DNA of 64,000 nt, taken from NCBI GenBank assembly GCA_020060485.1, contig JAGVAB010000090.1:21344-85343 (forward strand). The letters are read 5' to 3'. This document shows, piece after piece, positions 1-30,710 of this stretch. The stretch's first letter is position 1, and the number at the start of each line of letters is the position of its first letter. Source of the DNA: Anaerolineales bacterium (GTDB lineage Bacteria; Chloroflexota; Anaerolineae; Anaerolineales; Anaerolineaceae). The position numbers were made by a program, and so were the translations under genes. The notes beneath the pieces were generated by a model. The model was not told where the DNA came from, did not search any database, and was given only the letters and a program-made list of their open reading frames with translations.

Positions 1-815
1 CCAAAGCGGCGCAGTACAGCATCCAGCACGGCTTCATCCTCTTCGGGGGAAAGCGTGCAGGTGGCATAAACGACCTGACCGCCAACCTTGACCGCCTGCA
101 AAGCGCTGGTAAGCAGCCGCACCTGGCGGCGGGACAAAGCCAGCAGTTCATTGTCTGAAATGGCACGCAGGCTATGCGCATCGGTAGCACGCAGACCTTG
201 CATCGAGCAGGGGGCATCCAGCAGCACCCGGTCGAAAACCTCCGGGAACCAGCCCCCGAATCTTTCGCCGGGGAAGTGGGCCAGGCCAAGATTCATTGCC
301 CCCCAGGACTGCATCACCAGGCGCAGGGCGGTAAGGCGGTCGCGGCTTGAATCGTTGGCAACCACCAGACCATGATCGCCGGTGCGGCTGACAATGTGTG
401 TGGTTTTGCCGCCGGGCGAAGCAGCCATATCAAGGATCAAAGGGGCATCCAGGCCGCCCAGGTCAAACAATTCCACCGGCAGCATCGAGGCCGCATCCTG
501 AATATAATATTCGCCCAAACGATGCTCAACAGGATGACTGATCGGTTCTGAGCTGGAAGACACCCACCAGCCATGCGGGCAGAAGGGCACCTGCTCCACC
601 GTCCAGTCGTAGCGGGCTACCAGGCTCTGAATGGCTGGCTGCGGATCAACCTTCAAGGGGTTGGCGCGCACGCCCTGGTAGAGCGGCAGTTCAAGTTCTG
701 CGAGGAGACGCTTCCACTCTTTCCCGTCCAGCAAGGGCTGAAAGCGTGCCATCTGCTGCTCGAGAATCTCCTCGCTGGTGAGCTGCTTTTGTTCTTTACT
801 TTTCCTACGCGCCAT
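1..815 (-). CDS. rsmF: RsmF-type 16S rRNA m5C methyltransferase, C-terminus beyond the window
   Basis: NOL1/NOP2/Sun-family SAM-dependent RNA cytosine-C5 methyltransferase; 271 residues are visible and the frame is still open at the window edge. The SAM motif DMAASPGGKT lies at about 129-138. The two family cysteines are visible in DAPCS (C203) and ATCTLSPEE (C253). The N-terminal part, with WTVEQVPFCPHGWWV and GEYYIQDAASMLP, resembles E. coli RsmF, which makes m5C1407 in helix 44, more than RsmB. The ATG at 815 overlaps the end of the preceding methyltransferase gene by 11 bases, so translation is probably coupled. RsmF is favoured by the N-terminal similarity and by the neighbours, which belong to a family that modifies G1405. 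Target specificity is inferred. Confidence 0.88.
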   Translation of the reverse strand, partial: MARRKSKEQKQLTSEEILEQQMARFQPLLDGKEWKRLLAELELPLYQGVRANPLKVDPQPAIQSLVARYDWTVEQVPFCPHGWWVSSSSEPISHPVEHRLGEYYIQDAASMLPVELFDLGGLDAPLILDMAASPGGKTTHIVSRTGDHGLVVANDSSRDRLTALRLVMQSWGAMNLGLAHFPGERFGGWFPEVFDRVLLDAPCSMQGLRATDAHSLRAISDNELLALSRRQVRLLTSALQAVKVGGQVVYATCTLSPEEDEAVLDAVLRRF

Positions 816-1629
816 AACCTTTGTCAATGCAAAAGATCAATTCTGTGCCAACACACAGTTCAGTAACATGCCAGGGCAGGTCTCCGATGGTGGTATAGAT
901 CAGACTGCGATGCTGCTCGGCCAGGTTGTGTTTACCGGTCAGGCTGACTGCCGGCAAGGTGACTACCAGCACCTGGGCTTTGACCGCCTGCCAGAAAGCA
1001 CGGTTGCAGCCTCGCTGCCGTTGTTCAAAGCGATGCGCTTCCTTGAAAAAGAAGACCACATCCGCGGCAACATCCGGCGGCTCAACCAGAATGTCCTGAT
1101 GGCGGGCCAGGGGCTGCAAACCTTGCAAGGAAAAATAGCGATTGAGCAGTTCCACCCGCGGCTGGTGCAGATCATAAGCCCAATACTGCACCGAAGACGG
1201 CAGTTTCATCCACAGAAAAGCCAGAGGGTTCAGCCCGCAAGCCAGGTCGAGAATGACCTGCGGCTGGCCAATGACAGCAAAGATGTTGTCATAAAAAGCC
1301 TGCAAAACGGGCAGGCGCTCCTGGGTGGAAGCATGCATTCCCATCAAACGCGAGCAAGCCAGGCGCACCGCGGCCTCCTCGCCACTATTGAATGCCTTTT
1401 CCAGGCAGCGCTGCGCCATGCCATAATCCGGATCTCCCAAATAGGGGGCAACGATATTGTGTAATTTCTGGCGCACTGCTTTGACCAGCAGGCGGGTGGA
1501 AGACTGTTTTTCAGCTTCCAAAGCCAGCAAGTCTTCCACAGTAGCCCGGGGAATGTTCAAATCCCGATATTTGCGTGAATGCAAAATTTGAACGGCCAGG
1601 TCTTGCTGCTGTTGCACTTCGAGTTTCAT
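805..1629 (-). CDS. Divergent ArmA/Rmt-family 16S rRNA (G1405-N7) methyltransferase paralogue
   Basis: A 274-residue protein of the family of ArmA and RmtB, which methylate N7 of 16S G1405 and give aminoglycoside resistance. Family features: KLHN at 55-58, HASTQERLP at 99-107, SAM-binding ILDLACGLNPLAF at 126-138, and a C-terminal GTEL at 261-264. It is clearly a paralogue of the next gene. However, the helix after the SAM domain reads FFKEAHRFEQ where ArmA, RmtB and the neighbour have LLK/FK-x-LP-x-L. The segment after TLPAVSLTGK has lost the GMExNY motif and reads HNLAEQHR. SAM binding is likely, but target or activity may have changed. It sits 6 bases downstream of its paralogue and overlaps rsmF by 11 bases. 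Confidence 0.82.
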   Translation of the reverse strand: MKLEVQQQQDLAVQILHSRKYRDLNIPRATVEDLLALEAEKQSSTRLLVKAVRQKLHNIVAPYLGDPDYGMAQRCLEKAFNSGEEAAVRLACSRLMGMHASTQERLPVLQAFYDNIFAVIGQPQVILDLACGLNPLAFLWMKLPSSVQYWAYDLHQPRVELLNRYFSLQGLQPLARHQDILVEPPDVAADVVFFFKEAHRFEQRQRGCNRAFWQAVKAQVLVVTLPAVSLTGKHNLAEQHRSLIYTTIGDLPWHVTELCVGTELIFCIDKGYGA

Positions 1630-1635
1630 TGGCAG

Positions 1636-2445
1636 TTACCGGCTGACCAGAAAGGCCAGCTCTGTCCTGAATTGAAAGCGTTTGATCTGCCAGCCGCGGC
1701 CTGCCACAAGCTGGTGAAAATGATTTTCATAATTTTGTTCCATGCCCTTGGCACGCCCGCCCAGACTGCGCACCGGAAAAGAAACCAGCAAATGCTCGGC
1801 AGCAATGGAGTCCAGCAGGCGCGGCCCCACAGTCTTGTCAAGCTGCTCCAGGCAGGGGATGGTCTTCAACAAGAAAGCCACCTGCACCGGCAGCGAAGGG
1901 CATTCAATGCTCAGGTCACACACCGAGACATGCTGCTGCACGCCGCAATGGTCAAGAAAGCCGCCCACAAAAGCCAGCATGTTCTCATAGATGTCGCAGG
2001 CATGGTAAACAACGTCATCCGCCACAGGCATCCAGGCCAGGGCCAACGGATTCAGGCCGCAAGCCAGATCGAGAACAGAATGAATTGGGCCGAGCGAAGC
2101 CAGAGTCTGGCCGAAGAATTCTTCAAGAATGGGCAGGCGTTCGCGGGTGGAGGCATGCTGGGTCATGGCCTGACGGCAAAACTCCTGCATGGCCGGGTCA
2201 GCGGGGCAGGATGGCAAAGCGGCAAGTTTCTCCTGCCAGACATCAAAATCCGGCCCGGCTTCCAGATAGGCGCCGCCCACCTGATGCAGCTTGCTGCGTG
2301 TAGATTTAATCGCTTCCTTGAGATTGCTGCGTTTTCCAAGCTCCTGGGCGCCCACCCGCCGCACAAGGTCTTCACTGATGCCGCGGTAGCGGGCACCGGA
2401 ACGCACGGCTGTCACCAGCTCGTCAAGGCGTTCAGCATCAACCAT
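1636..2445 (-). CDS. ArmA/RmtB-type 16S rRNA (guanine1405-N7)-methyltransferase
   Basis: A 269-residue protein, close to the usual 250-280 residues of 16S m7G1405 methyltransferases. All family landmarks that I can recall are present: SKLHQVGGAY at 51-60, QHASTRERLPIL at 96-107, SAM motif VLDLACGLNPLAL at 124-136, LLKTIPCLEQ at 192-201, SFPVRSLGGR at 222-231, GMEQNY at 234-239 and TEL near the C-terminus. The N-terminal helical part corresponds to the 30S-docking domain of the family. The expected reaction is SAM-dependent N7 methylation of G1405 in the mature 30S subunit, blocking 4,6-disubstituted deoxystreptamine aminoglycosides. Its start overlaps the end of the transglycosylase gene by 8 bases. 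Family membership is strong; activity is inferred. Confidence 0.88.
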   Translation of the reverse strand: MVDAERLDELVTAVRSGARYRGISEDLVRRVGAQELGKRSNLKEAIKSTRSKLHQVGGAYLEAGPDFDVWQEKLAALPSCPADPAMQEFCRQAMTQHASTRERLPILEEFFGQTLASLGPIHSVLDLACGLNPLALAWMPVADDVVYHACDIYENMLAFVGGFLDHCGVQQHVSVCDLSIECPSLPVQVAFLLKTIPCLEQLDKTVGPRLLDSIAAEHLLVSFPVRSLGGRAKGMEQNYENHFHQLVAGRGWQIKRFQFRTELAFLVSR

Positions 2446-3544
2446 GAAAGCGTTCCCGGATGCGCTCAGTGAGCTGGGTCATGAAGCGCAAATTGTGCAG
2501 GGTGGCTAACCGCAGGAAAAGGCTGTCATTCATCTTGAACAGATGACGCAGATAACCCAGCGAATAGTTGCGGCAGGTAAGGCAATCGCAGCCAGCGTGA
2601 ACCGGGCGGTTGTCGCGGATATGCTGGTCGTCATTGATGTAAATGTACTTGAGCCAGTCACCATCCAGGCCGGCCCCGGGTGCATCTGCGGGAAAAACAA
2701 AGCTGTACAAACGGCCGTGGCGGGCATCGCGGGTGGGCATGGCACAATCAAAGATGCCATACCCCAGTTCGTAACACTGCAAGACGTTCTTGGGGTGGCC
2801 AATGCCCAGGGCATGGATCGGATACTGGTCCGGGATGAGAGAGCGGGTGTAGGCCAGGATATCGATGAGCAGGTTACCTTCTCCATCCAGCGGCCAGCCG
2901 CCAAAGCCATAGCCATCAAAGCCAATCTCCAGCAAAGCCTCGGCGCATTGGCGGCGCAGCTCCAGCACGCCGCCGCCCTGAATAACACCAAACAGCAATG
3001 GCCGTTCTGCGCGGGAGAGTTGTTTCTGAGCCAGTTGGCGATCAAACTCAGCCCGGCTGCGGCGCGCCCAGGCAATCGTACGCTCAACGGAAAGGCATTG
3101 CTCCTCGTAGGGAGCATCCACGTGTGTGCAATCGTCCAGGCAAATGGCAACATCCGCGCCATAGCTGAGCTGCAGCTGGATGCTTTTCTCAGGGGTCAAC
3201 TGGTATTTGCGGGAACTGCCTTCGGGTTGAAAGACCAGACCTTTGTCAGTCAATTTGCCGAATTTCGGATTCTGGCGAATGAGTGAATAGGCCTGAAAAC
3301 CGCCCGAGTCAGTGATGATGGGCCGCGACCAGCCGCTCATGGCGTGCAAACCACCCAGGGCAGTCACCGTGGCAGAACCAGGGCGCTGCATGAGATGAAA
3401 ACTGTTCATCACCACCGCCTGAATATGACAGTCGATCAGGTCCATGGCATCCACTGCGCGCACCACGCCAAAAGTGGCATCGGGCAAGTAGGCCGGGAAA
3501 TCCAGGCGGCCATGGGGAAGATCAAGCCAGGTTGGGAATGACAT
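2438..3544 (-). CDS. tRNA-guanine transglycosylase-like protein with altered substrate loop
   Basis: A 368-residue TIM-barrel base-exchange enzyme of the TGT family, which normally swaps guanine 34 of tRNA for a queuosine precursor. Visible: ITDSGGFQ at 77-84 with the conserved Asp79, LDDC at 136-139, GVIQGG at 186-191, nucleophile Asp266 in FDCAMPTR, and the zinc site C319-x-C-xx-C324 with H350. The loop that in bacterial TGT reads GGLAVGE is here GGWPLDGEG (216-224). The usual RNGRNG stretch after the nucleophile is DARHGR. The base or RNA exchanged may therefore differ from the usual preQ1. Start at ATG 3544 follows GAGGAG at 4-5 bases. It appears to be the first gene of the RNA-modification operon. 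Confidence 0.85.
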   Translation of the reverse strand: MSFPTWLDLPHGRLDFPAYLPDATFGVVRAVDAMDLIDCHIQAVVMNSFHLMQRPGSATVTALGGLHAMSGWSRPIITDSGGFQAYSLIRQNPKFGKLTDKGLVFQPEGSSRKYQLTPEKSIQLQLSYGADVAICLDDCTHVDAPYEEQCLSVERTIAWARRSRAEFDRQLAQKQLSRAERPLLFGVIQGGGVLELRRQCAEALLEIGFDGYGFGGWPLDGEGNLLIDILAYTRSLIPDQYPIHALGIGHPKNVLQCYELGYGIFDCAMPTRDARHGRLYSFVFPADAPGAGLDGDWLKYIYINDDQHIRDNRPVHAGCDCLTCRNYSLGYLRHLFKMNDSLFLRLATLHNLRFMTQLTERIRERFHG

Positions 3545-3597: not shown

Positions 3598-4419
3598 CTA
3601 AAACGTCATATTCACCAGTGAGCGAAAGGCGTGGTAGGCTTGCAGCATATCCGGGCAGACAAATTCCATGCGCCGTGCATCCAGCCGGGTGGCATTCGGC
3701 ACCAGTGATGAACCATCAGTCATGCCGGATGTTTTAAATTCCACTGTGACCGTAACCGGTTTGGTCAACGCATACGGCTGCGGACCCTCACCCTGTTTGA
3801 AGCGTTTTACGGCGCGCTGCGCTGTCTCGCGAATGACCTGCTGCGCCAGCTGGATTCCCAGGCATTCTGCGGATTGGTGGCTGGTGGCGGTCTTGACAAT
3901 GGCAGTCTCGATCCCGGGAATGGCTGCTTTGGCTTCAACTGCCAGAGTCTGATCACCAGAAACCATCAACACCGGAATACCATAATGCCCACAAACAGCG
4001 GCATTCAAGGCCGTCTCACCCACGATCTGGCCATTTAACCAGACATTGGCCACGTCCTTGCTGGACCAGGTGTGGTCGAGCACGGCCGGCGTGGAGCCGA
4101 CCCGGGCATGGTAACCGATAAAAATGGCGGCATCCACGTCACTGCCCACCCCCTGCACCATGGCAAACGGGGCAACATTGCCCGAATGCAGACTGGCTTT
4201 GGGGTGCAGATCTTCAATGAGGATATTGCGGCCATGGCCATGACCATCAACAACCAGAATGTCTTCCACCCCAGCGGCCAGGGCACCCTCAACAGCAGCA
4301 TTGACATCGGCTGTCATCAACTTGCGAAAACGGGTGTATTCCGGATGCGTGGAACTCACATGGTCCCAGGCAACCACGCCTGATATACCTTCCATATCAA
4401 CTGCAATTAACAACTTCAT
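3598..4419 (-). CDS. dppA: M55 family D-aminopeptidase (DppA-like)
   Basis: Zinc peptidase of family M55, which releases D-amino acids from short peptides. The N-terminal metal-binding segment AVDMEGISGV, then VVDGHGHGRN, GYHA and the downstream VSGDQ are visible in the family order. There is no signal peptide, so it is cytoplasmic, and it may help recycle cell-wall peptides. The reading frame is open to an ATG at 4437, but the ATG at 4419 is preferred because GGGAGAG lies just upstream and homologues begin with the MKLLIAVDMEG-type segment. About 270 residues, the family's normal length. A 53-base gap separates it from the transglycosylase gene downstream on the same strand, so co-transcription is possible. 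Confidence 0.88.
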   Translation of the reverse strand: MKLLIAVDMEGISGVVAWDHVSSTHPEYTRFRKLMTADVNAAVEGALAAGVEDILVVDGHGHGRNILIEDLHPKASLHSGNVAPFAMVQGVGSDVDAAIFIGYHARVGSTPAVLDHTWSSKDVANVWLNGQIVGETALNAAVCGHYGIPVLMVSGDQTLAVEAKAAIPGIETAIVKTATSHQSAECLGIQLAQQVIRETAQRAVKRFKQGEGPQPYALTKPVTVTVEFKTSGMTDGSSLVPNATRLDARRMEFVCPDMLQAYHAFRSLVNMTF

Positions 4420-4602
4420 AGTGTCTCTCCCTGGCAATGAGATTGGGCTGCATAAAAATCTGTTCCAAGTATACTACGGGGCGCGATGAACAGACAGCCG
4501 GAAATGAAGAACGAAGAGAGGCTCATGGAAGCTTGCGGTCACCTGCTGAACATCATCGGCGCACCCTTCGAAAAGCTCAGGATGTACTCGAATGAACAAG
4601 AA

Positions 4603-4652: not shown

Positions 4653-6035
4653 TCAGCGCAGCTTTTCACAAACCGTCTGGTCATAAGTGATGAGGGAAGC
4701 ATAATAGCGTGTGACCCAATTGGCCGAGCCTGCTTCCTTGTTATTCAACAAATTATAAAGCATGCCGGCAGGATCAGCCGCCACCCATTGGGCATCATTC
4801 AGGGGCACTTCCTGGCGGTCGGGCGACTCCCAATAGGTGCTGCCCAGCGGCATCAAATGCACCCAGGTCTGTCCTGGCTTGAGTGCCACCGGGTTCCCAT
4901 TCTGGTCAATAAAGCGGATGGGGCGCAGTTTGCCAGTCGTGCGCTCATACTCCTCACTCTTGGTCGTCCAGTAAATCGGGTAAACCTGCCCATCCCGGAA
5001 AAGGATGGCGGGAGCACGCGGAATATATTGCAGGTCAATGTCGAAGGCCACTTCATTGCAAGCCCGGTGCTGGGCAAAGAGCAGAATCACGTTTTCGTAG
5101 GTCAAGCCTTCCCCGTTAACCCGGTCCGTGGCCTGGATGAAGGTCTTGCCGTCCGCGTTGTCCTGATAGCGGCGGTAGGCCTCAATTTCGGGGTCATACT
5201 GCCAGACAACCTGGTTGATCTGGTTATAGATGAACCACAAACGATTGGCAGGCTGGCCGCCCGGCTGCACGGTTTCATCATAGAGATTCGCTTGCAGCGA
5301 ATTCTCTCCCAGCCGTCTCTGATTATTCTGAGCGATCTGCTCGATCCTGTCCACCGGAATCATGGCCGAATTAATATCATCCGCATCCGAGCCATAGATA
5401 TTGCTGAACTGGCTCAAATTGGCAGCCACCCCGGAATAAGCCGAAGACATGACCAAAAAACCATTGTACAAATTACGCAGGGATTCATACGGCAGGCGGC
5501 CGGAGCGGATCGGTCCCACAAGGGAATTGCCCGCATTCTGCGGATCTGTCACCTGAGGATATGAGCCATAGAACAATCCCAGGAAGCGCGACATGCCTTC
5601 ACCAATATAAAGCTCAAACACAAAGGGACTGAAGGAAAGGCCTGCTGCCGGTCGAGCGGCTGGCGGCCAATTGGTGATCGAGATCAATGCAGGCGGGAGA
5701 AGTAGATTAGCGGGATCATTTACCGGCAAGCCAGTCAGGGGATTGATCCCCGGCGGATAAGATTGTGGCCCAAATGGTCCCTCTGGAGCAGGCGGCAAGG
5801 CGAGCGGCTGTTCTTCTTCTGGCTCCGGCTCCAGGACGGGTTCAAGGGTGGGAGTTTCCTGCGGAACAGGCTGGGGAGGGGCAGAAGCAACCGGAGGCGG
5901 AACATCCTGCGGCTCGACAGCATCCTGGGATTCGTTCATTTCTGAACCACCAGAAGACAACATCCCTGTTGTACTGCAAGCCAGGCTAAAGATCAAAACC
6001 AGGGAGACAATCCAAAACAACTTTTTCGATACCAT
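4653..6035 (-). CDS. DUF3048 (YerB-like) lipoprotein
   Basis: A 460-residue exported lipoprotein. A hydrophobic leader ends in the lipobox FSLAC with Cys20, followed by a long Pro/Glu-rich spacer (about 35-95) likely to hold the domain away from the membrane. The rest matches the DUF3048 pattern: NPLTGLPVNDP, then ISITNWPPAARP, VGPIRSGRLPYESL and, near the C-terminus, TWVHLMPLGSTYWESP. The function of this family is not established to my knowledge; Bacillus YerB is an exported member. Start at ATG 6035 follows AGGAGG at 5 bases. It is transcribed alone, divergently from the glucosidase operon, with its own terminator. Confidence 0.85.
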   Translation of the reverse strand: MVSKKLFWIVSLVLIFSLACSTTGMLSSGGSEMNESQDAVEPQDVPPPVASAPPQPVPQETPTLEPVLEPEPEEEQPLALPPAPEGPFGPQSYPPGINPLTGLPVNDPANLLLPPALISITNWPPAARPAAGLSFSPFVFELYIGEGMSRFLGLFYGSYPQVTDPQNAGNSLVGPIRSGRLPYESLRNLYNGFLVMSSAYSGVAANLSQFSNIYGSDADDINSAMIPVDRIEQIAQNNQRRLGENSLQANLYDETVQPGGQPANRLWFIYNQINQVVWQYDPEIEAYRRYQDNADGKTFIQATDRVNGEGLTYENVILLFAQHRACNEVAFDIDLQYIPRAPAILFRDGQVYPIYWTTKSEEYERTTGKLRPIRFIDQNGNPVALKPGQTWVHLMPLGSTYWESPDRQEVPLNDAQWVAADPAGMLYNLLNNKEAGSANWVTRYYASLITYDQTVCEKLR

Positions 6036-30538: not shown

Positions 30539-30564
30539 ATGCGAGACAATTTCATAAATATCAT

Positions 30565-30661
30565 TTCTCCGAACTGCCGCGCCTAAAGGCCAGTACCCAC
30601 GGCGAGCAGTCGTCAGGGTATGGCGGGAAATCGCCATGCCTCCCGCATTTGGAAAGGAGAG
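30565..30661 (+). promoter_or_regulatory. Moco (molybdenum/tungsten cofactor) riboswitch aptamer
   Basis: The closing stem CTCC (30567) pairs with GGAG in the 3' element GGAAAGGAG. The Moco-family marks GGCGGGAAATCGCC and ATGCCTCCC are present, along with paired internal arms (GTACCC with GGGTA, and GCGCC with GGC around TAAA). The order CTCCGA, GGGAAA loop, GCCTCCC, GAAAGGAG is that of the Moco RNA motif. It lies upstream of an intrinsic terminator and a molybdenum-linked operon. Sensing reduced or tungsten forms of the cofactor would terminate or permit transcription. Confidence 0.88.
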
Positions 30662-30710
30662 CAATAACCTGCACCGCCTCGTCCATTGAGGCGATGTCAT
30701 GGTTGTTAGC

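What the first reader, a model, noticed from the sequence alone, without database searches (positions are those of the whole stretch)
1..3544. Operon joining two ArmA/Rmt-type G1405 methyltransferases, RsmF and a TGT-like enzyme
Seen: four minus-strand genes with overlaps or a 6-base gap, encoding a transglycosylase-like protein, two tandem 16S m7G1405-family methyltransferases, and an RsmF-type m5C methyltransferase. Established: ArmA/Rmt enzymes methylate G1405 and RsmF methylates C1407, two bases apart in helix 44, and ArmA/Rmt methylation is known to interfere with RsmF activity. The known members come from aminoglycoside producers or resistance plasmids. Inference: a chromosomally built-in decoding-site modification set in an apparently non-producing lineage, either a native aminoglycoside-insensitive ribosome or an ordered modification pathway. 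It could also be related to the reservoir from which mobile resistance methylases came.
Basis: partly seen in the sequence, partly recalled or inferred. Interest (0 to 1): 0.87.

Follow-up and report, generated by a model that had tools for sequence, protein, structure and literature searches.

The report
Decoding-site modification operon with unusual transglycosylase
A group of mostly uncultured bacteria carries a conserved gene set that appears to modify the decoding centre of its ribosomes, pairing relatives of clinical aminoglycoside-resistance methylases with an unusual base-swapping enzyme that, in the genomes checked, occurred only where such a methylase was also present.

Summary
The four genes are real. 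They form an old operon: TGT2-A-B-RsmF on one strand recurs in Anaerolineae and other Chloroflexi-labelled contigs. A is a good G1405 N7-methyltransferase candidate. B is an old paralogue with a remodelled active site, so "two ArmA/Rmt enzymes" is half right. The surprise is the transglycosylase. It is not the genome's queuosine TGT: a higher-scoring canonical TGT lies elsewhere in 14 of 14 relatives. It belongs to a separate clade, here called TGT2 (100/100), with intact catalytic Asp and zinc site. TGT2 has Pro232 where canonical TGT uses a backbone NH to read guanine N7. In 400 Chloroflexota genomes TGT2 was found in 70, all among the 77 with a G1405-type methyltransferase, and in 0 of 323 without. 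Other neighbours are RsmI, RsmF and, on an rmtG plasmid, RsmH and an RsmI piece: enzymes for C1402 and C1407. Mobile rmtB2, rmtD2, rmtE2 and rmtG sit with TGT2 genes; three of these four group with Clostridia. Best reading: a housekeeping decoding-centre module in which TGT2 exchanges a base in or near helix 44, dependent on the methyltransferase. The substrate is not shown.

The parts
2438..3544 (-). TGT2: second, non-canonical tRNA-guanine-transglycosylase-family protein (368 aa), first gene of the set
1636..2445 (-). A: G1405-family (FmrO/Rmt/Sgm) 16S rRNA methyltransferase candidate (269 aa)
   Evidence: FmrO 182.8 bits; Rmt-general model 212.5 bits, cut-off 250; Sgm E 1.3e-46; family active-site residues kept
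805..1629 (-). B: FmrO-family paralogue with remodelled active site (274 aa)
3..827 (-). RsmF-type m5C methyltransferase, N-terminal 275 aa only (cut by window edge)
   Evidence: RsmB/F 118 bits, RsmF_N 51 bits; RsmF model best at 200 bits, cut-off 588; a full-length relative in L012 scores 305 bits; PCS and TCT motifs visible in the translation (their role as catalytic cysteines is recalled)
3598..4437 (-). M55 D-aminopeptidase just upstream on the same strand; adjacent, not thought part of the module
   Evidence: Peptidase_M55 319.6 bits; found beside TGT2 in only some relatives

Best explanation
This is a housekeeping decoding-centre modification operon. A writes m7G at G1405 of 16S rRNA (inferred from family and kept active site). 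RsmF writes m5C at C1407, and in a part of the relatives RsmI next to TGT2 acts on C1402 (inferred from families). TGT2 is a distinct transglycosylase clade that cleaves a glycosidic bond through its conserved Asp280-type nucleophile and exchanges the base. Since, in the phylum sample, it was found only in genomes with a G1405-type methyltransferase, and its neighbours act within helix 44, its target is most likely a guanine of the decoding centre, at or next to G1405, and its job depends on the methyltransferase. B is a second, older FmrO paralogue that probably modifies another site or the product of the first steps. Shown: gene order, co-occurrence, clade, residue changes, predicted fold. 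Inferred: RNA targets, the base inserted, order of steps.
For: Order TGT2-A-B-RsmF conserved. Two TGTs and exactly two FmrO proteins in each of 14 of 14 genomes. TGT2 in 70 of 400 Chloroflexota genomes, all 70 FmrO-positive: 70 of 77 FmrO-positive genomes against 0 of 323 others. In 7 genomes (G055, G108, G157, G211, G243, G343, G385) TGT2 and FmrO are on different contigs or over 300 kb apart yet both kept. A and TGT2 lie within 400 nt, same strand, in 58 of 76 A-bearing pieces. RsmI in 24 of 78 pieces, touching TGT2 or A in 23 (stop-to-stop frames), and beside TGT2 in 13 of 68 loci of the first set. In G165 and G317 the RsmI beside TGT2 is the only one found in the genome. On an rmtG plasmid: RsmH-TGT2-RmtG-RsmI piece. 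C1402, C1407 and G1405 are the neighbouring helix-44 targets of RsmI/RsmH, RsmF and Arm enzymes (PMC12406665, introduction read). Catalytic residues kept, N7-reading switch changed.
Against: No rRNA substrate for any transglycosylase is known to me, so a tRNA target is the conservative default. TGT2 keeps Arg286 and Arg289, which I recall as tRNA anticodon contacts (the paper opened for this, did not discuss them in the passages found). The co-occurrence count is not corrected for shared ancestry, and a diverged TGT2 below the threshold would be missed. Seven FmrO-positive genomes lacked TGT2; G314 has it, G067 has a TGT2 end at a contig edge; G189, G395, G241, G120 and G287 remain as exceptions or incomplete assemblies. 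No chromosomal gene order from Clostridia could be read.
Confidence: 0.5

Rival explanations
1. TGT2 is a tRNA enzyme: a second wobble-type transglycosylase that retunes tRNAs to ribosomes carrying m7G1405, and is kept with the methyltransferase for that reason.
For: The TGTs that I know of act on tRNA, or on DNA for DpdA (recalled); fold and catalytic residues are those of Tgt; the window protein passes NCBI's tRNA-guanosine(34) model, 312.3 against 306.75 bits. Most of the resistance methyltransferases tested in E. coli are reported to give error-prone translation (PMC12406665 abstract), so compensation is thinkable.
Against: A canonical TGT is already present in 14 of 14 genomes and QueA in 27 of 30. 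Recurrent neighbours are rRNA enzymes; no queuosine gene stood out among them. The residue whose NH reads N7 of guanine is Pro.
Confidence: 0.27
2. TGT2 and the methyltransferase travel and persist together only as a mobile or co-inherited cassette, with no shared substrate; TGT2 is a redundant queuosine-type enzyme using salvaged bases.
For: Several plasmids carry both genes. 49 of 77 FmrO-positive genomes show no QueC match above 44 bits, so salvage of deazaguanines is likely there. In G356 only the TGT2 copy was found, though the assembly may be incomplete.
Against: Co-retention when the genes are unlinked in 7 genomes. Uniform changes at 231/232 across Chloroflexota and the Clostridia-type rows imply a shared, different constraint. 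No TGT2 in 323 FmrO-negative genomes.
Confidence: 0.13
3. The operon is first of all an intrinsic aminoglycoside-resistance device, as in producers, with TGT2 and B as accessory factors.
For: A is related to Sgm and Rmt enzymes; host helix 44 keeps the drug-binding nucleotides G1405 and A1408.
Against: Conservation over many genera together with RsmI and RsmF genes is unlike a resistance island; the opened plasmid records of rmtB1, rmtC, rmtF2 and armA show no annotated TGT in the 2.8-4 kb flanks fetched (their gene tables are incomplete), so TGT2 seems not to be needed for resistance.
Confidence: 0.1

Closest known systems
ArmA/Rmt/Sgm (FmrO, PF07091) 16S rRNA m7G1405 methyltransferases
   Same: A and B share the family; A keeps the family active-site residues; B has the Sgm fold in prediction
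   Different: Chromosomal and operonic in many relatives; below the NCBI Rmt equivalog cut-off; B lacks KG of the KGM loop and the conserved Pro
Bacterial tRNA-guanine(34) transglycosylase Tgt (Zymomonas mobilis)
   Different: Separate clade; Trp231-Pro232 replace Leu-Ala/Ser, Glu235 mostly lost, Val45 to Asp, Leu259 to Ala (Gly in some), three longer insertions; paralogue beside a canonical copy
RsmF (m5C1407), RsmI and RsmH (C1402) housekeeping enzymes
   Same: Family matches for the operon neighbours
   Different: Clustered with a G1405-type methyltransferase; 19 of 27 genomes searched carry two RsmI copies
Plasmid rmt segments with a putative tRNA ribosyltransferase (K. pneumoniae Kp13 rmtG, PMC3904158, passages read)
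   Same: A TGT-family gene immediately upstream of rmtG
   Different: Reported there as one gene next to another; the passages I read say nothing of the clade, of a wider linkage or of RsmH/RsmI flanks

Membership tests
G1405 N7-methyltransferase (A) | PF07091 match over the curated cut-off | tested here: met
   182.8 bits, cut-off 27
G1405 N7-methyltransferase (A) | NCBI Rmt-general equivalog NF000466 cut-off | tested here: not met
   212.5 bits, cut-off 250
G1405 N7-methyltransferase (A) | Residues shared with Sgm and plasmid enzymes (HxS...ER, CGLNP, K and P of LLKTxPCLE, KGM loop) | tested here: met
   Kept in window A and in all or nearly all of 76 A rows; N of CGLNP in 92%
G1405 N7-methyltransferase (A) | Methylation of G1405 | not testable with these tools
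   Needs enzyme assay or rRNA mass spectrometry
G1405 N7-methyltransferase (B) | PF07091 match over the curated cut-off | tested here: met
   136.6 bits, cut-off 27
G1405 N7-methyltransferase (B) | NCBI Rmt-general equivalog NF000466 cut-off | tested here: not met
   171.2 bits, cut-off 250
G1405 N7-methyltransferase (B) | Conserved Pro of LLKTxPCLE, and the KGM loop | tested here: not met
   Pro is His in 97% and the KG columns are gaps in 100% of 89 B rows; the Lys itself is kept in 100%
Canonical tRNA-guanine(34) transglycosylase (TGT2) | Fold, catalytic Asp and Zn site | tested here: met
   Cys320 absent in a few rows
Canonical tRNA-guanine(34) transglycosylase (TGT2) | TIGR00430 equivalog cut-off | tested here: inconclusive
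   Window 312.3 against 306.75; rmtG-plasmid TGT2 296.2, below it
Canonical tRNA-guanine(34) transglycosylase (TGT2) | Residues of the guanine/preQ1 peptide switch (231/232 with NH, Glu235) | tested here: not met
   Pro232 in 141 of 141 TGT2 rows; Glu235 absent from the commonest residues in the Anaerolineales and other Chloroflexota rows, 22% of the 18 Clostridia-type rows; role of the switch from passages of PMC3660597
Canonical tRNA-guanine(34) transglycosylase (TGT2) | Being the genome's queuosine TGT | tested here: not met
   A higher-scoring TGT (510-533 bits) lies elsewhere in 14 of 14 genomes; inferred from score, not from activity
DpdA / archaeosine TGT | Curated model cut-offs NF041059 and TIGR00432 | tested here: not met
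   15.3 against 200, 84.7 against 350 bits
RsmF | RsmB/F and RsmF_N domains | tested here: met
   full-length relative
RsmF | NF008898 equivalog cut-off | tested here: not met
   200.2 (cut piece) and 305.4 (full-length relative) against 588; still the best-scoring model

The most novel reading that the evidence does not exclude
TGT2 takes N7-methylated G1405 as its leaving base. The methyltransferase primes the base (m7G is a good leaving group, recalled chemistry) and TGT2 swaps it, either back to guanine (an eraser of m7G1405) or for another base that B then modifies. This would be base exchange in ribosomal RNA, at the aminoglycoside site. It would explain why TGT2 was found only with the writer, why the NH that reads N7 of guanine is replaced by Pro232, and why many hosts need not make preQ1 themselves (49 of 77 FmrO-positive genomes without a QueC match above 44 bits).
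Probability: 0.15. Interest if true: 0.96.

Novelty: new variant of a known kind. Interest (0 to 1): 0.82.

Why it matters
m7G1405 enzymes are known from drug producers and resistance plasmids; here a G1405-type enzyme looks like standard equipment of a large bacterial lineage. The partner enzyme would, if it acts on rRNA, be an rRNA transglycosylase, a kind of modification that I know of from nowhere. The TGT2 genes kept beside mobile rmtB2, rmtD2, rmtE2 and rmtG point to chromosomal TGT2-rmt operons as donors, Clostridia-like for three of the four, which makes the origin of these resistance genes testable.

Tried and rejected
TGT as an ordinary queuosine gene in the operon: rejected, since a higher-scoring canonical TGT sits elsewhere in 14 of 14 genomes. 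B as a recent tandem copy of A: rejected by the tree. Changed drug-site nucleotides in the hosts as the reason for the set: rejected, helix 44 reads canonically in all 7 16S copies, from 5 genomes, that cover it; an eighth piece (L121) does not reach it, and 2 of the 8 genomes searched gave no 16S. Window genome search: no genome held. Clostridial gene order through viral contigs: 51 pattern matches, none encoding a relative. RsmH in the Chloroflexota pieces: none by a model built from the single plasmid protein. rmtA and rmtH were not in the tree; Sgm was the only actinobacterial protein in it. A distance correlation of A and TGT2 (r 0.74, 0 of 1000 permutations as high, 113 loci) mostly reflects shared ancestry and is not used as proof. 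Ten paper searches: searches returned nothing; in the other listings no title or abstract start that I saw told of a G1405-type methyltransferase in Chloroflexi or of a TGT linked to rRNA. Most subscription papers are not held.
Full report
WHAT IS THERE. Pfam and NCBIfam confirm the families: TGT, FmrO twice, RsmB/F with the RsmF N-domain. The best-scoring solved relatives are Z. mobilis-type Tgt, Sgm for both methyltransferases, and YebU (recalled as E. coli RsmF). No whole genome is held for the window; the protein hits that bear a name are Anaerolineaceae or Anaerolineae.

CONSERVATION. A scan of genome contigs with a B alignment gave 266 loci, of which 80 were returned; their titles name Anaerolineae genera or families, or only Chloroflexi/Chloroflexota. 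In these 80, TGT2 was seen in 68, A in 71 and RsmF in 77, in the same order and strand, often overlapping; many misses are contig ends. Gaps over 300 nt occur in 2 of 68 TGT2-A, 6 of 71 A-B and 1 of 77 B-RsmF pairs. In 14 genomes examined whole there are exactly two FmrO proteins and two TGT proteins each, including G009-G011, where the two FmrO genes lie on different contigs or over 20 kb apart.

THE TRANSGLYCOSYLASE IS NOT THE CANONICAL ONE. The canonical copy scores 510-533 bits and lies elsewhere; the other copy scores 267-324 bits. Aligned to Z. mobilis numbering, TGT2 keeps Asp102, Asp156, Gln203, Gly229, Gly230, Asp280, Arg286, Arg289, Cys318, Cys323 and His349 in every row with the column filled, and Cys320 in nearly all. 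It differs from the canonical copies at 45 (Val to Asp), 46, 52, 155, 231 (Leu to Trp), 232 (Ala/Ser to Pro), 259 (Leu to Ala, Gly in some) and 287 (to Asp/Glu). Pro232 is present in all 141 TGT2 rows of four sets (4 plasmid, 18 from the protein list whose named members are mostly Clostridia, 49 other Chloroflexota, 70 Anaerolineales-type including the window); the 14 canonical copies have Ser. Trp231 is found in 140 of 141, Phe in the rmtE2 plasmid piece. PMC3660597 (passages read) states that the NH of the 231/232 peptide contacts N7 of guanine through a water, that its carbonyl faces preQ1 after a flip, and that Glu235 interacts with either state. Proline has no NH and Glu235 is not kept in most TGT2 rows, so the guanine-reading state cannot form in the known way; this last step is inference. 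The predicted structure is confident (pLDDT 91.8) and matches Tgt over its length. In a tree of 57 rows (a sample: 8 of 14 canonical relatives, 7 other canonical, 4 plasmid, 9 of 18 Clostridia-type, 17 of 49 Chloroflexota, 11 Anaerolineales-type rows and the window) TGT2 is separate from all 15 canonical rows (100/100); one canonical row (Arthrobacter) is long.

DEPENDENCE ON THE METHYLTRANSFERASE. In 400 mostly unnamed Chloroflexota genomes PF07091 is found in 77 and TGT2 (profile A3, E at most 1e-90) in 70. All 70 are among the 77; none of the other 323 has TGT2 (Fisher p 1e-70, not corrected for ancestry; a diverged TGT2 below the threshold would be missed). Of the seven exceptions, G314 does carry TGT2 (L135) and G067 a TGT2 end at a contig edge (L158). 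G189, G241, G287, G395 and G120 do not show it; the FmrO gene of G287 and G120 is at a contig edge, and G241 has a second TGT-family match that one search counts but does not list. In 78 pieces around the FmrO genes, A was seen in 76; TGT2 lies within 400 nt on the same strand in 58, farther off in 3, and outside the piece or absent in 15. Seven of the latter pieces' genomes keep TGT2 on another contig or over 300 kb away (G055, G108, G157, G211, G243, G343, G385). A control from the preQ pathway: QueC matches of 96 bits or more occur in 28 of the same 77 genomes; Pfam's lenient cut-off (22 bits) would count 51, the rest of which score 44 bits or less, often over short stretches. So QueC does not track FmrO as TGT2 does.

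NEIGHBOURS POINT TO HELIX 44. RsmI (C1402 2'-O) occurs in 24 of 78 pieces and touches TGT2 or A in 23, in stop-to-stop frames. The model TIGR00096 was passed by all 9 proteins sent (7 such copies, the more distant one of L139, and one far Anaerolineales-type copy) and by one more. RsmI lies within 300 nt of TGT2 in 13 of 68 loci of the first set. Of 27 genomes searched, 19 have two RsmI copies and 8 one; in G165 and G317 the single one is beside TGT2. RlmN appears in 9 of 78 pieces at larger distance. [quoted passage not shown] RsmH was not found in the Chloroflexota pieces with a one-sequence model.

A AND B. A keeps the residues common to Sgm and the plasmid enzymes; B keeps the SAM site, His-x-Ser, Glu-Arg and the Lys of the active-site region, but the following Thr-x-Pro became Glu-x-His (His in 97%) and the KG of the KGM loop is missing in all 89 B rows. 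In a tree of 56 rows sampled from 236, B is one clade (100/100); A groups with most single-copy Chloroflexota proteins (99/99) and B does not; the 8 plasmid enzymes, with one Chloroflexota row (L195), are apart (86/97). Several branches there are long and the bootstrap had not settled. B's predicted fold is that of Sgm.

MOBILE GENES. Of 71 plasmid records with a TGT match, 60 are listed; the first 16 (H61-H76) are 45-55% identical to window TGT2, the other 44 at most 36.1%. Eight of the 16 are annotated with rmtG under the match. Opened: one rmtB2 record (TGT2, a phosphoesterase gene, rmtB2), one rmtG record (RsmH, TGT2, rmtG, a piece matching the start of RsmI), one rmtD2 record, and two rmtE2 records with a cut TGT2 piece. 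The others opened, rmtB1, rmtF2, armA and rmtC, show no annotated TGT in the 2.8-4 kb flanks fetched; these gene tables are incomplete. The rmtG TGT2 has relatives up to 86% identical among unnamed proteins (two at 98-99% are probably the plasmid gene itself); those with an organism name in the list of 120 are Christensenellales, Clostridia, Clostridiales or Eubacteriales MAGs, besides entries called uncultured bacterium. In the tree the rmtD2 and rmtG rows lie inside that group and the rmtB2 row is its sister (100/97 for all); rmtE2's piece is unplaced within TGT2. PMC3904158 (passages) already reports a putative tRNA ribosyltransferase gene immediately upstream of rmtG. I recall a similar report for rmtD, which I did not look up.

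HOW IT MOST LIKELY WORKS. A methylates N7 of G1405; RsmF and RsmI finish C1407 and C1402; TGT2 exchanges a base in the same RNA region, in a way that needs A; B acts on a further site or on the product. Canonical TGT with QueA (27 of 30 genomes) makes queuosine. Probabilities (my estimates): A is a G1405 methyltransferase 0.85; TGT2 function depends on A 0.8; TGT2 acts on 16S rRNA 0.5, on tRNA 0.3; TGT2 uses m7G1405 as leaving base 0.15.

LIMITS. All target assignments are by family. Phylum-level counts rest on mostly unnamed, partly incomplete genomes. Clostridial gene order was not seen, and the dependence was counted in Chloroflexota alone.

Noticed in passing
window 30555-30675 (+): Moco/tungsten riboswitch (RF01055, 76.4 bits) before a molybdopterin oxidoreductase-domain gene, a solute-binding protein gene and a transporter permease gene.
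   Followed up: partly
window 4653-6035 (-): DUF3048 protein upstream of the M55 peptidase.
   Followed up: no
L098 3051-6117: An rmtG plasmid holds RsmH-TGT2-RmtG-RsmI piece, apparently a slice of a decoding-site operon.
   Followed up: partly
L196 (G189): A FmrO gene next to RsmF with no TGT2 and only one TGT found in the genome: a real-looking exception to the pairing.
   Followed up: partly
L184, L186, L187, L188, L189, L191: Two RsmI copies in one neighbourhood, one touching TGT2 and one on the other strand about 3-5 kb beyond B; G001-G014 also have two copies each.
   Followed up: partly
L097 5146-5955: A metallophosphoesterase gene sits between TGT2 and rmtB2 on a Providencia plasmid.
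   Followed up: no
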